Positions 4,552 through 51,145 of a DNA stretch of 64,000 nt are shown piece by piece (positions within the stretch are counted from its first letter, which is position 1; every line of letters starts with the position of its first letter). The translations under genes were made by a program, and so were the position numbers. This DNA comes from Mycoplasmatota bacterium (GTDB lineage: Bacteria > Bacillota_I > Bacilli_A > Izemoplasmatales > Hujiaoplasmataceae): assembly GCA_018622675.1 (NCBI GenBank), contig CP076020.1, positions 310,001 to 374,000 of the forward strand. Reading direction: 5' to 3'. The notes below the pieces were generated by a model. It did no database searches and was not told the origin of the DNA. It worked only from the letters and a program-made list of their open reading frames with translations.

Positions 4552-5445
4552 ATGGAAAAGATGATCACTTGGATTAAAAAAAATGCCAGACCTTTAGAAA
4601 AGAAATTATATTTATTCTATTTTGAAGATGGTTCAAAAGAAGATGTTATTAAAGAACTCAGTGTATTTCAGAATAAAGACGGTGGTTTTGGTCATGGACT
4701 AGAACCTGATTTTTCAAATCCCAATAGCAATCCTATTGATTCGTGGAAAGCCGCTAGAATACTTGATGGATTAGAGCTTGATAAGAATCATTCGATGATT
4801 CAATCGCTTGTTGAATATTTTATCAATACAAAGGATAAAGATCATTGGAAATACTATTTTACTGTACCTTCAAACAATGATTATCCTCATGCACCATGGT
4901 GGCATTATAAAGAAGAAACTAAAATAGTCAATTATAACCCAACAGCTTCAATATTAGGGTTCTTATATAAGTATATAGAAGAAAATCACCCACAATATAA
5001 AGCTATCGAACAAGCTCTAGACCAATCCATTAATTATTTAATGAGCCACGACGTCACAGACATGCATGAACTAACTTGCTTTAATGAATTATATGAATAT
5101 ATTTGTGAAGGCATTGATTGTTCGAATATAAGAAGAAGGCTTATGCAATTAAATCATAAAGCCATCGAAAAAGATAGCGGAAAGTGGTTTAGTACCTATT
5201 GTGCTAGACCAACACAAGTTTTTGTATCTATGCATAGTCCAGGTGCCAAAGAGGCTATGGGATTAATTCATCAAGAATTCACTTTGTCATTAGACCATAG
5301 AAATCAAGAGGGCGTATTTGATATAAGTTGGGATTGGGGAAATTATCCTAAGGATTTTGACAAAGCTAAAAAAGAATGGATGGGTATCCTTGCTCTGAAA
5401 ACTTTACGGGTTGCACAAGAGTATAGATATGCAGTAGAAGAATAA
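4552..5445 (+). CDS. conserved protein, predicted alpha/alpha-toroid (terpenoid-cyclase-like) fold
   Basis: This is a 297-residue soluble protein with no signal peptide. The motif FQNKDGGFGHGLEPD (about residues 39-53) resembles the QW/prenyltransferase repeat 'QxxDGGFG' of alpha/alpha-toroid proteins such as squalene cyclases and prenyltransferase beta subunits, but the catalytic DxDD or zinc residues of those enzymes are not evident. No reaction can be assigned. The start is uncertain because only GTGGGG, about 8 nt upstream, serves as a ribosome site. The XRE regulator follows after 17 nt and is probably co-transcribed. Confidence 0.65.
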   Translation: MEKMITWIKKNARPLEKKLYLFYFEDGSKEDVIKELSVFQNKDGGFGHGLEPDFSNPNSNPIDSWKAARILDGLELDKNHSMIQSLVEYFINTKDKDHWKYYFTVPSNNDYPHAPWWHYKEETKIVNYNPTASILGFLYKYIEENHPQYKAIEQALDQSINYLMSHDVTDMHELTCFNELYEYICEGIDCSNIRRRLMQLNHKAIEKDSGKWFSTYCARPTQVFVSMHSPGAKEAMGLIHQEFTLSLDHRNQEGVFDISWDWGNYPKDFDKAKKEWMGILALKTLRVAQEYRYAVEE

Positions 5446-5462
5446 ATATACAGGAGTTAATA

Positions 5463-6401
5463 ATGGCTGATATTGGAAAAAGAATTAAATACTTAAGAAA
5501 AACCAAGGACATGAGTCAAAAGGAGTTAGCCAAGAGCTTACATGTAGCTGTTTCTACAATTAGTAATTGGGAAAGAGGAAGAAACAATGTTAGTTCAGAT
5601 TTTATTAATGATATTGCAGTGGCTTTAGATGTTAAAGTCAGTGATTTATTAGATCAAGAAGAAAAAACAAACAACCCTTCTTTTCCAGTGGCTATGTCTT
5701 CTAAACCTTACTTAGATTATGAATATTCATTCAATTATCTTTATTGGGGTCTCTTGCTTGTTACAGTTATTTTGACTTTTATATCTCCTATATTTAAAGG
5801 ACGCATTCAAGATTTATCAATCTTATCATGGATTATTTTTGCTTTATTAAGTCTGGGTTCATTAATTAAAAATTATAAAAAGAATATTAGCACAAAATAT
5901 TATGAAGATGGACAAACTTTATATTATGAACACAAGTATTATTCCAAGGAAGATATCCAAGATAAAAAATTCCTTAGAAATACTGTGTTAATGCTATTTT
6001 TAATTGCTAATTCTGTTTTCATATTTTCTGCAGCTATCATTCTTTCATATACAGATGATTTATTTACTTATATATTTTATCCAGCATTATTTGTGATTAT
6101 GAATCTCTTATTAGTTTATTCCTTTGTCATTCATACCAGTGAATTACATAAGGGTAAGACAATATCATATCAATCGATCAACTTAAACTTTTTCTTAGGA
6201 AGAGTCAAGATAATGTTGATATTGTATATTTTTACTTATTTTTATCACTATGCCATCATATATACTTTAGATATTATGCCTTATAAGGGTTTTGCAGAAA
6301 TAGTCTTTCATATATTTTTTGCTTTTGGCATCATGATGTTTGTTTCTATGTATCAAGAAGAAAAATACTACTATTCTTTTATGAAAATAAAGGTGAAATA
6401 A
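5463..6401 (+). CDS. XRE-family regulator with membrane-spanning C-terminus
   Basis: Residues 5-58 are a classical helix-turn-helix_3 domain (KRIKYLRKTKDMSQKELAK, then VAVSTISNWERGRN). Residue 95 onward holds roughly six hydrophobic segments, so this 312-residue protein is a membrane-anchored DNA-binding protein. Such fusions sense envelope conditions or membrane partners while binding DNA from the membrane; the signal here is unknown. AGGAG lies 8 nt before ATG 5463. The gene follows the toroid protein by 17 nt and is closed by a terminator at 6426. Confidence 0.85.
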   Translation: MADIGKRIKYLRKTKDMSQKELAKSLHVAVSTISNWERGRNNVSSDFINDIAVALDVKVSDLLDQEEKTNNPSFPVAMSSKPYLDYEYSFNYLYWGLLLVTVILTFISPIFKGRIQDLSILSWIIFALLSLGSLIKNYKKNISTKYYEDGQTLYYEHKYYSKEDIQDKKFLRNTVLMLFLIANSVFIFSAAIILSYTDDLFTYIFYPALFVIMNLLLVYSFVIHTSELHKGKTISYQSINLNFFLGRVKIMLILYIFTYFYHYAIIYTLDIMPYKGFAEIVFHIFFAFGIMMFVSMYQEEKYYYSFMKIKVK

Positions 6402-6425
6402 TTACACATATTGTCAATTAATTAC

Positions 6426-6451
6426 AGCGAGTTTATGACTTGCTTTTTTTT
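6426..6451 (+). terminator. terminator after the XRE gene
   Basis: AGCGAGT (6426-6432) pairs with ACTTGCT (6438-6444, one G-U) over TTATG and continues into T8. Confidence 0.65.
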
Positions 6452-6493: not shown

Positions 6494-6805
6494 ATGTGGA
6501 ATGAGTTGTTTAATACAATATTTGGTATAAGACCATACGCTTCAGTATTTATATTCGATGTAATAACACCATACGCTTTATCACTGATCTATTTTTATAA
6601 AATCATCATAAAATATTTAACATTTATAAGAAGAAGATCGTTTGTGACTAAGATGATCATGCAGCATGTATATTCTTATTTAATCATCTTTTTATTTAAC
6701 TTTATCTTTAGGCAAATAGAAGAATTATTCTTAGCGATGATCATAGGGGTAGGATTATTATACTTACTTTACTTTAATTATTTAATTCATAGGAGGAAAC
6801 AATGA
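6494..6805 (+). CDS. small membrane protein, unknown function
   Basis: This 103-residue protein has three likely membrane helices (about residues 17-37, 59-73 and 77-95) and Arg/Lys-rich loops such as IRRRS and the tail HRRKQ, which suggest a cytoplasmic C-terminus. AGCAGGTGG precedes the ATG by 5 nt. Its stop overlaps the next gene by 4 nt (ATGA). It opens a three-gene cassette with the 6802 and 7304 genes, bounded by terminators on both sides. I do not recognise the family. Confidence 0.65.
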   Translation: MWNELFNTIFGIRPYASVFIFDVITPYALSLIYFYKIIIKYLTFIRRRSFVTKMIMQHVYSYLIIFLFNFIFRQIEELFLAMIIGVGLLYLLYFNYLIHRRKQ

Positions 6806-7302
6806 AATACGAAGACATTCAAAAACTCAATTTTATTTTGGAAGACGATGATCAAACAAAGGAGGGGTTTACAAATCAACTATCAAAAAAAGAACTTGAC
6901 CAATACCTAAAGTCATCTAGGAAAAATACCAGTAAAGAAAAGATGGCAGAACATGTTTTTCACTTATGGGAAAAAGACCATGAACATAAGTCGAGTTATG
7001 AAAAAATGATGGTAAAAAATAGCATAATCAATCAACTAAAAAATGGGGATAAGCATTATGTTTTAATGGTTTGGTGGTTTGTGGATAATGGGAAACCGTT
7101 TTTTATAGATATCAAACATGAAACTTCTATAAACGAAATAACTAACACTGAACTACAAACTATATTGGAAACAAAACAATGCGAGTATACGATTTTAAAG
7201 AAAAATTTATCAGAATTAAAAGCAGAAGTTCTAAAAAAACAAATCATTTATTATTATCATGTAAAAGGTTTGGCCTTAATGAATCATAAGGAGTTGATTT
7301 AA
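6802..7302 (+). CDS. unknown protein of the NERD cassette
   Basis: A 166-residue, charged, soluble protein lacking signal peptide or membrane segment. The N-terminal half is rich in Lys, Glu and Asp with likely helices; the middle holds a beta-like stretch (HYVLMVWWFVDNGKPFFIDI). AGGAGG in the end of the membrane protein gene sits 6 nt before the start, and the next gene begins 1 nt after its stop, so it is translationally coupled on both sides. No known domain recognised. Confidence 0.65.
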   Translation: MKYEDIQKLNFILEDDDQTKEGFTNQLSKKELDQYLKSSRKNTSKEKMAEHVFHLWEKDHEHKSSYEKMMVKNSIINQLKNGDKHYVLMVWWFVDNGKPFFIDIKHETSINEITNTELQTILETKQCEYTILKKNLSELKAEVLKKQIIYYYHVKGLALMNHKELI

Positions 7303-7303
7303 T

Positions 7304-8011
7304 ATGTGGTTTTTATTCAGTATATTTTTAATAACAATCATTGTTTTGTCATTATTGAAATCTCCTATTGTAAAGGGTATGGTAGGGGAATATAGGGTAA
7401 AAAAAATCCTTAAGAAAGCAGGCCTTAGTTTTGGTGGTTGCGATTTAAATGATATCATGCTAGAAGATAATCGTTCTTCATCTCAAATAGATCATATATT
7501 ACTAACACAAAAGGCTTTGTATGTTATAGAAACCAAAAATTATCATGGACATATTTATGGTAATGAATCATCACAGAAATGGACGATGACAGTTAAACAC
7601 GTCAATAAGCAAAGGAGTAAAAAGGGTAAACTGTATAGGAAAACACATATTTCAAAACATCAATTTTATAACCCAATCAAACAAAATCAAACACATATAA
7701 GAAAGATTGTGAACTTAACAAATTTTGATCAAGATCTACCCATTGTCAATATCGTTGTTTTTGGAAATAAAGCTGTTTTAAAAGATGTTACTCATTCTAA
7801 GCAAAATTATGTGATTAATGAAATAGAATTATTAAAAACCATCAATACCATAGAAAGGAGTATCCTTAAGGAAATTGATATAGTAAAACAAATTGACATC
7901 ATAGATAAACTAGTATTTTTAAATATAACTTTGAAGAGAGAAAGAAGACAACATATAAAGAGGATTAAAACGAAATATCAAATTGATTTTGATATAAGTG
8001 ATAAGATATAA
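7304..8011 (+). CDS. NERD-domain (nuclease-related) membrane-tethered protein
   Basis: This 235-residue protein starts with one membrane helix (residues 1-20). The NERD domain follows: GMVGEYRVKKIL (about 26-37), then SQIDHILL with Asp63, then VIETKNYHGHIYG with Glu76-x-Lys78. Asp63 and the ExK pair give the PD-(D/E)xK nuclease pattern, so the active site looks intact. NERD proteins are thought to be DNA-processing nucleases; the substrate is not established. It is the last gene of a three-gene cassette and its stop lies inside a terminator hairpin. Confidence 0.85.
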   Translation: MWFLFSIFLITIIVLSLLKSPIVKGMVGEYRVKKILKKAGLSFGGCDLNDIMLEDNRSSSQIDHILLTQKALYVIETKNYHGHIYGNESSQKWTMTVKHVNKQRSKKGKLYRKTHISKHQFYNPIKQNQTHIRKIVNLTNFDQDLPIVNIVVFGNKAVLKDVTHSKQNYVINEIELLKTINTIERSILKEIDIVKQIDIIDKLVFLNITLKRERRQHIKRIKTKYQIDFDISDKI

Positions 8012-8026
8012 GCTTATCACTTTTTT
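7997..8026 (+). terminator. terminator of the NERD cassette
   Basis: AGTGATAAG (7997-8005) and CTTATCACT (8013-8021) form a perfect 9-bp stem with a 7-nt loop and a T6 run. The stop codon of the NERD gene lies in the loop. Confidence 0.8.
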
Positions 8027-49783: not shown

Positions 49784-51145
49784 ATGGCAAAATTAACAGA
49801 TATTATCATTGTAAATTCACATACATTAAAACTAAATTCAGATGCTAAAAAAGGCGACGAAATTGATCTTTTACTCTTAGATCATGTTGATACATCTATT
49901 TTATCTAAAAAAATAGAAGAAAAGAAAGATGAAGAATATAATAAACGTTTACTAGCTTTAGAAAAAGAGTTTAAACTAGAGAAAGAAAACGAGATTCAAA
50001 GGGCTCTTGAAGAGACTAAAGAAGTGATTACAGAATTAAAATTAAAATTGAAAAGTCAGGAAGAGTCTATTAAAAATCAATTAAATTCTAAATTCAATCT
50101 TGAAAAAGAAAAACTGAATTATCAAATTAAAGAATTAAATCAAGAAAAAGATAATTTACTTGCTAATAAAGAAAATGAAATTGATTTAGCCATAGCTCAC
50201 AAAGAAAATGAAATCAAGGATGATATCAATGGCTATAAACAAAAGATAGATCAACTAGAACGTGAAAAGACTTATATATTAAATAGTAAAGAACTTGAAG
50301 TTAAAAGCGCTATTAACGAAAGAGAAAAGGAACTTAATCTCCACATAAAGAAATTAGAAAATAAAGTATCTAAATTAACCTTAGAAAAATCAATGATGAA
50401 TATTAAAAAAATGGGTGAAGAACTTGAAAATTGGGTTGATCAAGAGTATCAAAATCATGCCTTAAATGGTTTTGATGCATGTACATGGGAAAAGGACAAT
50501 GAATCTATTAAAGGTCATGGCGAATCAAGAGGGACTAAAGCGGATTATATTTTTAGAGTATATGCAACAGAAGATAAAAAAGAAAATGAAATCATTACTT
50601 CAGTAGCATGTGAAATTAAAAGTGAAGATCCAACTTCTGCATATAAAAAGAAAAATGCTGATCATTATGAAAAACTTCACAAGGATAGAATTAAAAAGAA
50701 TTGTGAATATGCATTGCTGATTAGTGAACTAGAATGGGACTCTGTTAACGATGCACCGATAAGGAAAATTCCTGAATACGATAAAATGTATATGGTCAGA
50801 CCACAATATTTTATAGTTTTTTTGAGTATTGTTACTTCATTAGCTAATGCTCATAAAAAATTAATTACAGAATATAATTTTGAACAAGCCAAATTCAAAG
50901 ATTCTGAAGATATTTTAAAGGAATTTGATTCTATGAAAGATGAAATCCTTGATCGAAGCCTAAAATATATCGAAGATAAAATCAATGATATTAACGAGAG
51001 TGCTGAAGAAATTCAAAAACAAGCCGGTAAAATTATTGAATCATCAAGAGTGGTATTGGAATCACATTTAAGGACTGTTAAAAATAAGATTGAACAATTT
51101 AGTATTAAAAAAATTTCTAAACAAATTAAAGACCTAGATTCATAA
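49784..51145 (+). CDS. DUF2130-domain coiled-coil protein
   Basis: A 453-residue protein. Residues 40-205 are a long charged coiled coil (many KELEK-like heptads). Residues 210-370 are the DUF2130 domain: GEELENWVDQEY, GESRGTKADYIFRVY, CEIKSEDPTSAYKKKNADHY and LLISELEWD. DUF2130 is predicted to have a restriction-endonuclease-like fold (the ExK in CEIKSED would be its catalytic part). The cellular role is not established; links to DNA repair or phage defence are suggested in the literature only broadly. The SD is 27 nt upstream with a hairpin between. Confidence 0.85.
   Translation: MAKLTDIIIVNSHTLKLNSDAKKGDEIDLLLLDHVDTSILSKKIEEKKDEEYNKRLLALEKEFKLEKENEIQRALEETKEVITELKLKLKSQEESIKNQLNSKFNLEKEKLNYQIKELNQEKDNLLANKENEIDLAIAHKENEIKDDINGYKQKIDQLEREKTYILNSKELEVKSAINEREKELNLHIKKLENKVSKLTLEKSMMNIKKMGEELENWVDQEYQNHALNGFDACTWEKDNESIKGHGESRGTKADYIFRVYATEDKKENEIITSVACEIKSEDPTSAYKKKNADHYEKLHKDRIKKNCEYALLISELEWDSVNDAPIRKIPEYDKMYMVRPQYFIVFLSIVTSLANAHKKLITEYNFEQAKFKDSEDILKEFDSMKDEILDRSLKYIEDKINDINESAEEIQKQAGKIIESSRVVLESHLRTVKNKIEQFSIKKISKQIKDLDS

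What the first reader, a model, noticed from the sequence alone, without database searches (positions are those of the whole stretch)
6494..8011. Compact three-gene cassette ending in an intact NERD nuclease
A small membrane protein, an unknown charged protein and a membrane-tethered NERD protein with Asp63-x12-Glu-x-Lys overlap or abut (4-nt overlap, 1-nt gap) between two terminators. NERD proteins are seldom studied, and a fixed association with these two partners would be a candidate new system, possibly DNA uptake or defence.
Basis: inference. Interest (0 to 1): 0.6.

Follow-up and report, generated by a model that had tools for sequence, protein, structure and literature searches.

The report
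Membrane-tethered nuclease operon with modular partners
Three small adjacent genes end in an intact membrane-anchored nuclease-like (NERD) protein; the exact trio is not a fixed unit, but related bacteria keep versions of it just behind a membrane-embedded gene regulator, which suggests an uncharacterised nuclease module working at the cell membrane.

Summary
In detail: three tightly packed ORFs (3-TM protein, soluble 166-aa protein, membrane-tethered NERD) lie between two terminator-like hairpins, and the NERD is intact (E29, D63-x12-E76-x-K78). The proposed fixed three-gene association is refuted. The complete trio occurs only in the window among about 90 order, 340 class and 295 phylum genomes. 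The 3-TM protein lies between them in G057, G155 and the window. The middle gene is an add-on shared only with one same-genus genome; it is a catalytically degenerate GIY-YIG domain. Two linked NERDs (G057, G047) have lost catalytic residues. Relatives of the parts occur beside restriction-type genes: a 59%-identical NERD abuts an HNH/MazG/SLFN-helicase cluster, and a 3-TM homologue follows a type I HsdR. My best reading is a membrane-tethered NERD nuclease under a membrane-embedded XRE regulator, probably acting on incoming DNA (compare SNIPE), with an SmdA-like envelope role as the main rival. Nothing supports DNA uptake. Function is unproven; I rate it a new variant of a known kind.

The parts
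4552..5445 (+). 297-aa protein of unknown family, 17 nt upstream of the HTH6TM gene; 55% identical orthologue at the same place in G004
   Evidence: no Pfam family. Conserved neighbour within the genus only; not claimed as part of the core
5463..6401 (+). HTH6TM: XRE-type HTH (residues 3-70) plus six predicted TM helices (93-111, 117-135, 175-193, 204-222, 239-257, 276-294); the most constant upstream partner of these NERDs
   Evidence: HTH_3 E=9.4e-14; hydropathy; directly upstream of NERD or of the small genes before it in G004, G017, G057, G155, G386 and G047
6426..6444 (+). terminator-like hairpin between HTH6TM and the cassette
   Evidence: equivalent hairpin AGCGAATCCTTGATTCGCTTTTTTT in G004
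6494..6805 (+). 3-TM protein, 103 aa; homologues lie between HTH6TM and NERD in G057 and G155, and behind a type I HsdR/YgjP pair in G013; absent from G004
   Evidence: Window homologue weakly similar: best non-training hit in 5701 ORFs, E=0.006, above 3000 shuffles
6802..7302 (+). middle protein, 166 aa; C-terminal half is a degenerate GIY-YIG (LEM-3-like) domain lacking the Gly, Arg and Glu of the active site
   Evidence: sheet/helix order E86-93 E101-106 H116-124 E127-136 H138-154 in a low-confidence model
7304..8011 (+). NERD protein, 235 aa: N-terminal TM helix (1-19), then PD-(D/E)XK-type domain with E29, D63, E76, K78
   Evidence: AlphaFold2 mean pLDDT 94.3; best fold match Can2 nuclease
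7996..8022 (+). terminator-like hairpin at the end of the cassette, overlapping the NERD stop codon

Best explanation
The three genes form one transcription unit encoding an inner-membrane-associated nucleic-acid-processing module built around a NERD nuclease. Shown by sequence: the NERD carries an N-terminal membrane anchor, a basic cytoplasmic PD-(D/E)XK-type domain and a complete active-site set. The recurring companion is an upstream membrane-embedded XRE regulator (HTH6TM), often with a 3-TM protein. The middle protein is a GIY-YIG descendant that has lost catalysis and so can at most bind or position substrate. Inferred: HTH6TM senses a membrane event and controls the cassette; the 3-TM protein localises or gates the NERD; the tethered NERD cleaves DNA arriving at the membrane (phage or conjugating plasmid), with tethering protecting the nucleoid, as shown for SNIPE. 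The 0.4 confidence is for this functional reading; the architecture itself is about 0.85.
For: Intact NERD and conserved catalytic residues; confident fold with nuclease matches led by Can2. HTH6TM lies next to NERD in 7 loci of 3 families. In fetched loci XRE-TM genes precede NERD in 6 of about 61 cases and occur nowhere among about 620 other genes (Fisher p about 4e-7; loci not independent and collected around NERDs). Searching with the TM part of HTH6TM alone found a further HTH6TM-NERD pair, G047. The 3-TM protein follows HTH6TM and immediately precedes NERDs of two different subtypes (G057, G155). Restriction context of relatives: a 58.6%-identical NERD in G069 is 28 nt from an HNH gene in a MazG/SLFN-helicase-GIY-YIG cluster shared with G037, which also has Cas9; a 3-TM homologue follows HsdR-C and YgjP in G013. 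Patchy distribution (17 of 90 order genomes). Fast divergence of HTH6TM (39%) and middle protein (30%) against 61-90% for most flanking syntenic genes. Membrane-tethered nucleases cutting DNA at injection exist (SNIPE, PMC13190303).
Against: Two HTH6TM-linked NERDs (G057, G047) have lost active-site residues yet the genes persist, so nuclease activity is not always needed. The window locus is not a defence island: its neighbours are metabolic genes and the position is shared with G004, so it is not a recent mobile arrival. Three of eight HTH6TM genes in the order have no NERD beside them. No activity, expression or phage data exist.
Confidence: 0.4

Rival explanations
1. Envelope or cell-division scaffold: the membrane NERD works like staphylococcal SmdA, linking membrane, division or wall-synthesis proteins and possibly the nucleoid, with HTH6TM adjusting expression to envelope state. 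Catalysis is optional.
For: SmdA is a membrane-anchored NERD protein needed for normal morphology and division and lacks several conserved NERD residues (PMC9040797). HTH6TM-linked NERDs in G057 and G047 are catalytically degenerate. The partners are membrane proteins. The window locus sits stably among housekeeping genes.
Against: SmdA is monocistronic and conserved across its family, whereas here the NERD is patchy, present in 17 of 90 order genomes and absent from two of the four other genus members sampled. The window NERD keeps all catalytic residues.
Confidence: 0.3
2. No shared function: a NERD gene, a small membrane gene and a decayed GIY-YIG gene happen to lie in one operon, and the HTH6TM link reflects common descent of one locus.
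For: The complete trio is unique to the window. The middle gene is shared only with one same-genus genome and the 3-TM gene is missing there. The similarity of the window 3-TM protein to its relatives is weak. Closest NERD relatives in G049, G131, G124 and G147 stand without these partners.
Against: HTH6TM-NERD adjacency spans three families and two NERD subtypes, and the 3-TM gene sits in the same slot in G057 and G155. Overlapping or abutting reading frames are kept open although the middle gene diverges to 30% identity.
Confidence: 0.25
3. DNA uptake: a competence-linked nuclease that degrades one strand of incoming DNA.
For: Membrane anchoring and nuclease fold only.
Against: No competence gene lies beside the locus or its relatives in the neighbourhoods read, apart from a CoiA-like frame beside a NERD-less HTH6TM in G028. 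NERD is not a known uptake nuclease family.
Confidence: 0.03

Closest known systems
SNIPE, membrane-bound anti-phage nuclease (PMC13190303)
   Same: Single N-terminal TM anchor, basic DNA-contacting cytoplasmic part and a nuclease domain; a GIY-YIG relative takes part
   Different: SNIPE is one protein with DUF4041 and an active GIY-YIG. Here the nuclease is a NERD, no DUF4041 was detected, and the GIY-YIG-like protein is separate and catalytically dead
SmdA of Staphylococcus aureus (PMC9040797)
   Same: N-terminal TM helix followed by a NERD domain in the cytoplasm
   Different: SmdA is monocistronic and lacks conserved NERD residues; the window NERD is intact and in an operon behind a membrane regulator
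NERD-containing defence proteins: Mokosh type I and Nhi-like (table in PMC10952713), PglW of BREX/Pgl
   Same: NERD domain; weak PADLOC/NCBIfam similarity to PglW and to MAD6
   Different: Those proteins are long (e.g. PglW about 1400 positions); here a 235-aa stand-alone membrane NERD with no kinase, helicase or PLD partner
Transmembrane transcription regulators (PMC10269533)
   Same: DNA-binding domain joined to TM helices in one protein (HTH6TM)
   Different: XRE-type HTH with six TM helices and a NERD module downstream; I found no description of this pairing
GIY-YIG (LEM-3-like) homing-type nucleases of phages
   Same: Middle protein aligns through the G059 relative to this family
   Different: Active-site Gly, Arg and Glu are missing in the window and G004 proteins

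Membership tests
NERD (PF08378) | Match above the curated cut-off over the domain | tested here: met
   74.3 bits against a cut-off of 22.1, E=1.4e-20
NERD (PF08378) | PD-(D/E)XK-type catalytic residues present | tested here: met
   E29, D63, E76, K78 nearly invariant in 41 relatives and present in the window
NERD (PF08378) | Nuclease activity | not testable with these tools
   Needs purified protein; the SmdA paper states that NERD activity had not been studied experimentally before
   Complete trio only in the window; partial sets elsewhere
HTH6TM-NERD module | XRE-HTH with about 6 TM directly upstream of NERD or of the small genes before it | tested here: met
   Window, G004, G017, G057, G047, G155, G386; 3 of 8 HTH6TM genes in the order lack a NERD neighbour
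GIY-YIG (LEM-3-like) | Sequence similarity to the family | tested here: met
   Middle protein to G059 (E 3.5e-6); G059 to a GIY-YIG profile 63 bits; window 24.5 bits against 14.8 for the best of 2000 shuffles with a profile that includes G059. Without the G059 bridge only 11.8 against 10.3 bits
GIY-YIG (LEM-3-like) | Catalytic Tyr/Gly (YVGKG), Arg and Glu | tested here: not met
   FFIDIK in place of FYVGKG, no Arg, Glu replaced by Lys
SNIPE | DUF4041 in the same protein | tested here: not met
   No DUF4041 match in any of the three proteins
SNIPE | Active GIY-YIG nuclease | tested here: not met
   Catalytic residues missing
Mokosh / PglW-type systems | NERD fused or linked to helicase, kinase or PLD components | tested here: not met
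   Only weak PglW similarity (E 0.002) and no such neighbour in the window
SmdA | TM-anchored NERD | tested here: met
SmdA | Role in cell division and morphology | not testable with these tools
   Needs deletion and microscopy

The most novel reading that the evidence does not exclude
A previously undescribed membrane-embedded immune module: a six-TM XRE receptor detects membrane perturbation during phage or plasmid entry, a 3-TM adaptor passes the signal, and a tethered NERD nuclease, with a catalytically dead GIY-YIG DNA-binding subunit in this genus, cuts the entering DNA. This would be a NERD counterpart of SNIPE with a dedicated membrane sensor.
Probability: 0.15. Interest if true: 0.75.

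Novelty: new variant of a known kind. Interest (0 to 1): 0.42.

Why it matters
Stand-alone membrane NERD proteins are common but have almost no assigned function. A recurring link to a membrane-embedded regulator, with natural variants whose catalytic site has decayed, gives a direct way to ask whether NERD acts as a nuclease or as a membrane scaffold, and whether NERD modules guard the membrane against incoming DNA.

Tried and rejected
Fixed trio: rejected by genome searches. Recent mobile insertion: the cassette lies between the same flanking genes in G004 and no integrase or adjacent tRNA was seen. Phage or plasmid origin of the 3-TM and middle proteins: no relatives in viral contigs and no matches in plasmids, plus none in phages for the 3-TM protein. 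Structure of the middle protein: AlphaFold2 with 3 sequences reached only pLDDT 42 and Foldseek found nothing, so the GIY-YIG assignment rests on sequence. Direct PDB sequence search for the middle and NERD profiles: nothing significant. A possible operator TTGACAAnTTGTCAA after the HTH6TM gene in G047, with half sites in the window, G004 and G017, is not above chance by simple counting. G045 and G014 NERD loci: no HTH6TM partner seen.

Full report
OBSERVATION. Terminator-like hairpins lie at 6426-6444 and 7996-8022; the second contains the NERD stop codon. The number of hairpins is not above chance, but the first has an equivalent at the same place in G004. The last ORF is a NERD protein (PF08378, 74.3 bits) with D63, E76 and K78 as described. 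In 41 relatives E29, D63, E76 and K78 are nearly invariant. Hydropathy gives one TM segment in NERD (1-19), three in ORF 1 and none in ORF 2. The genome holds one copy of this NERD.

WHAT IS CONSERVED. Searches of 61 to 90 order genomes, about 340 class genomes and 295 phylum genomes with the three proteins or small profiles of them found the full trio only in the window. In the same-genus genome G004 the order is unknown protein - XRE/TM gene - terminator - middle gene - NERD, without the 3-TM gene. In G057 (another family) and G155 (a third family) it is XRE/TM gene - 3-TM gene - NERD, without the middle gene. In G017 and G386 it is XRE/TM gene - NERD. In G386 the HTH is barely detectable.

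IS THAT LINK MORE THAN CHANCE? In the fetched loci, XRE genes with at least four TM helices stood just upstream of NERD (or of the 3-TM/middle genes before it) in 5 loci plus the window, and nowhere else among roughly 620 further genes (Fisher p about 4e-7). This is an approximate figure: the loci were collected around NERDs and are not all independent. As a second test the TM part alone, without the HTH, was used as bait in the 90 order genomes. It found eight genes: the four known ones and four new ones. One of the four new ones, in G047, has a NERD gene directly downstream (PF08378, 26.2 bits, above the cut-off). The other three (G066, G064, G028) have none. The link is real but not obligatory.

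THE 3-TM PROTEIN. G057 and G155 proteins share 33% identity and the same slot before NERD, although their NERDs are of different subtypes. A further homologue in G013 (E=6e-9 by profile) lies after the C-terminal part of a type I HsdR and a YgjP peptidase. The window protein is the weakest member: it is the best non-training hit among 5701 ORFs (E=0.006) and scores above 3000 shuffles; its position supports the assignment. No Pfam, NCBIfam, PHROG or PADLOC family matches it credibly.

THE MIDDLE PROTEIN. No family matched directly. A relative in G059 (E=3.5e-6) keeps the motif FYVGKG..R....E...N. It matches a Cytobacillus plasmid protein, whose phage relatives are annotated homing endonucleases with LEM-3-like GIY-YIG and NUMOD3 similarity. 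A profile of these four scores G059 at 63 bits. With G059 included, the window protein scores 24.5 bits against 14.8 for the best of 2000 shuffles; without G059 the margin is small, 11.8 against 10.3. The window and G004 proteins have lost the glycine, arginine and glutamate of the active site. I conclude that it is a degenerate GIY-YIG domain, probably a binding subunit if it works at all. The AlphaFold2 model was poor (pLDDT 42), so this rests on sequence and on the bridge through G059.

THE NERD. AlphaFold2 with 41 sequences gave a confident model (mean pLDDT 94.3, pTM 0.86). Foldseek matches, modest in E-value, are led by Can2, with other restriction-endonuclease-fold proteins and nucleases such as Bax1 and Hjc in the list. 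Two NERDs linked to HTH6TM have decayed sites: G057 has TITA...LISLIP in place of QIDH...VIETKN, and G047 keeps the Asp but has VVDFLP. Both still score as NERD. Catalysis is therefore not needed everywhere, which weakens a simple nuclease story.

CONTEXT. The cassette lies between the same flanking genes in the window and G004: the MFS gene upstream (71% identity) and the ABC permease, serine dehydratase and hydrogenase genes downstream (61-90%, with one methyltransferase at 49%), while NERD is 60%, HTH6TM 39% and the middle protein 30% identical. It is an old, fast-evolving locus in the genus rather than a fresh insertion. Its window neighbours are metabolic. Relatives of its parts do occur beside restriction-type genes. 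A NERD 58.6% identical over 128 aa in G069 is 28 nt from an HNH gene with a Cas9-like HNH domain, in a cluster with a MazG-like gene and an SLFN helicase carrying GIY-YIG. G037 has the same HNH and helicase genes (63% and 56%) near a NERD of another subtype and a Cas9. Other close NERDs (G131, G124, G147, G049) stand among housekeeping genes or without these partners.

INTERPRETATION. Two functions fit. First, a membrane-tethered nuclease that attacks DNA entering the cell, comparable with SNIPE, whose TM anchor prevents host-DNA cleavage and whose GIY-YIG domain cuts phage DNA during injection (PMC13190303). Second, a membrane scaffold like SmdA, a TM-anchored NERD needed for division in S. 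aureus that lacks several NERD residues (PMC9040797). I favour the first (0.4) because the window NERD is intact and basic, the distribution is patchy and relatives sit with restriction genes. The second (0.3) is supported by the dead NERDs and the membrane partners. The link between HTH6TM and control of the cassette is inferred; a possible operator was seen but is not significant. DNA uptake has no support.

NOVELTY. NERD proteins, SmdA, NERD in defence systems (Mokosh type I, Nhi-like; PMC10952713) and transmembrane transcription regulators (PMC10269533) are known. In the literature searched I found no description of an XRE/6-TM - 3-TM - NERD module. It is a new variant of a known kind with unproven function.

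Noticed in passing
L077:90-3401 (G069) and L046:7366-12981 (G037): SLFN-g3 helicase with N-terminal GIY-YIG, MazG-like gene, Cas9-like HNH gene and NERD in one cluster; HNH 63% and helicase 56% identical between the genomes, but the NERDs are of different subtypes. Candidate restriction-type system.
   Followed up: partly
L128:705-3283 (G013): 3-TM homologue directly downstream of a type I HsdR C-terminal part and a YgjP metallopeptidase; possible membrane accessory of a type I restriction operon.
   Followed up: partly
L048:8341-9015 and L151:2176-3003: NERD proteins that have lost active-site residues but remain behind an HTH6TM gene.
   Followed up: partly
window 5463-6401 and 6802-7302 against L040:5608-6537 and 6632-7117: HTH6TM (39%) and middle protein (30%) diverge much faster than most flanking syntenic genes (61-90%).
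   Followed up: partly
window 4552-5445: 297-aa protein of no known family, 17 nt upstream of HTH6TM and conserved there in G004 (55%).
   Followed up: no
L155 about 5858-5875; window 6410-6418: Perfect inverted repeat TTGACAAGTTGTCAA after the HTH6TM gene in G047; half sites at the equivalent place in the window, G004 and G017. Possible XRE operator, not significant by count.
   Followed up: partly
L118:3669-5916 (G241); window 49784-51145: DUF2130 gene directly downstream of a NERD gene in G241; the window genome also has a DUF2130 gene, far from its NERD.
   Followed up: no
L140:4013-4411 (Cytobacillus plasmid) and L142:595-963 (Pontibacillus plasmid): Small GIY-YIG proteins annotated hypothetical; both carry YYVGKG..NRA and E motifs.
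   Followed up: no
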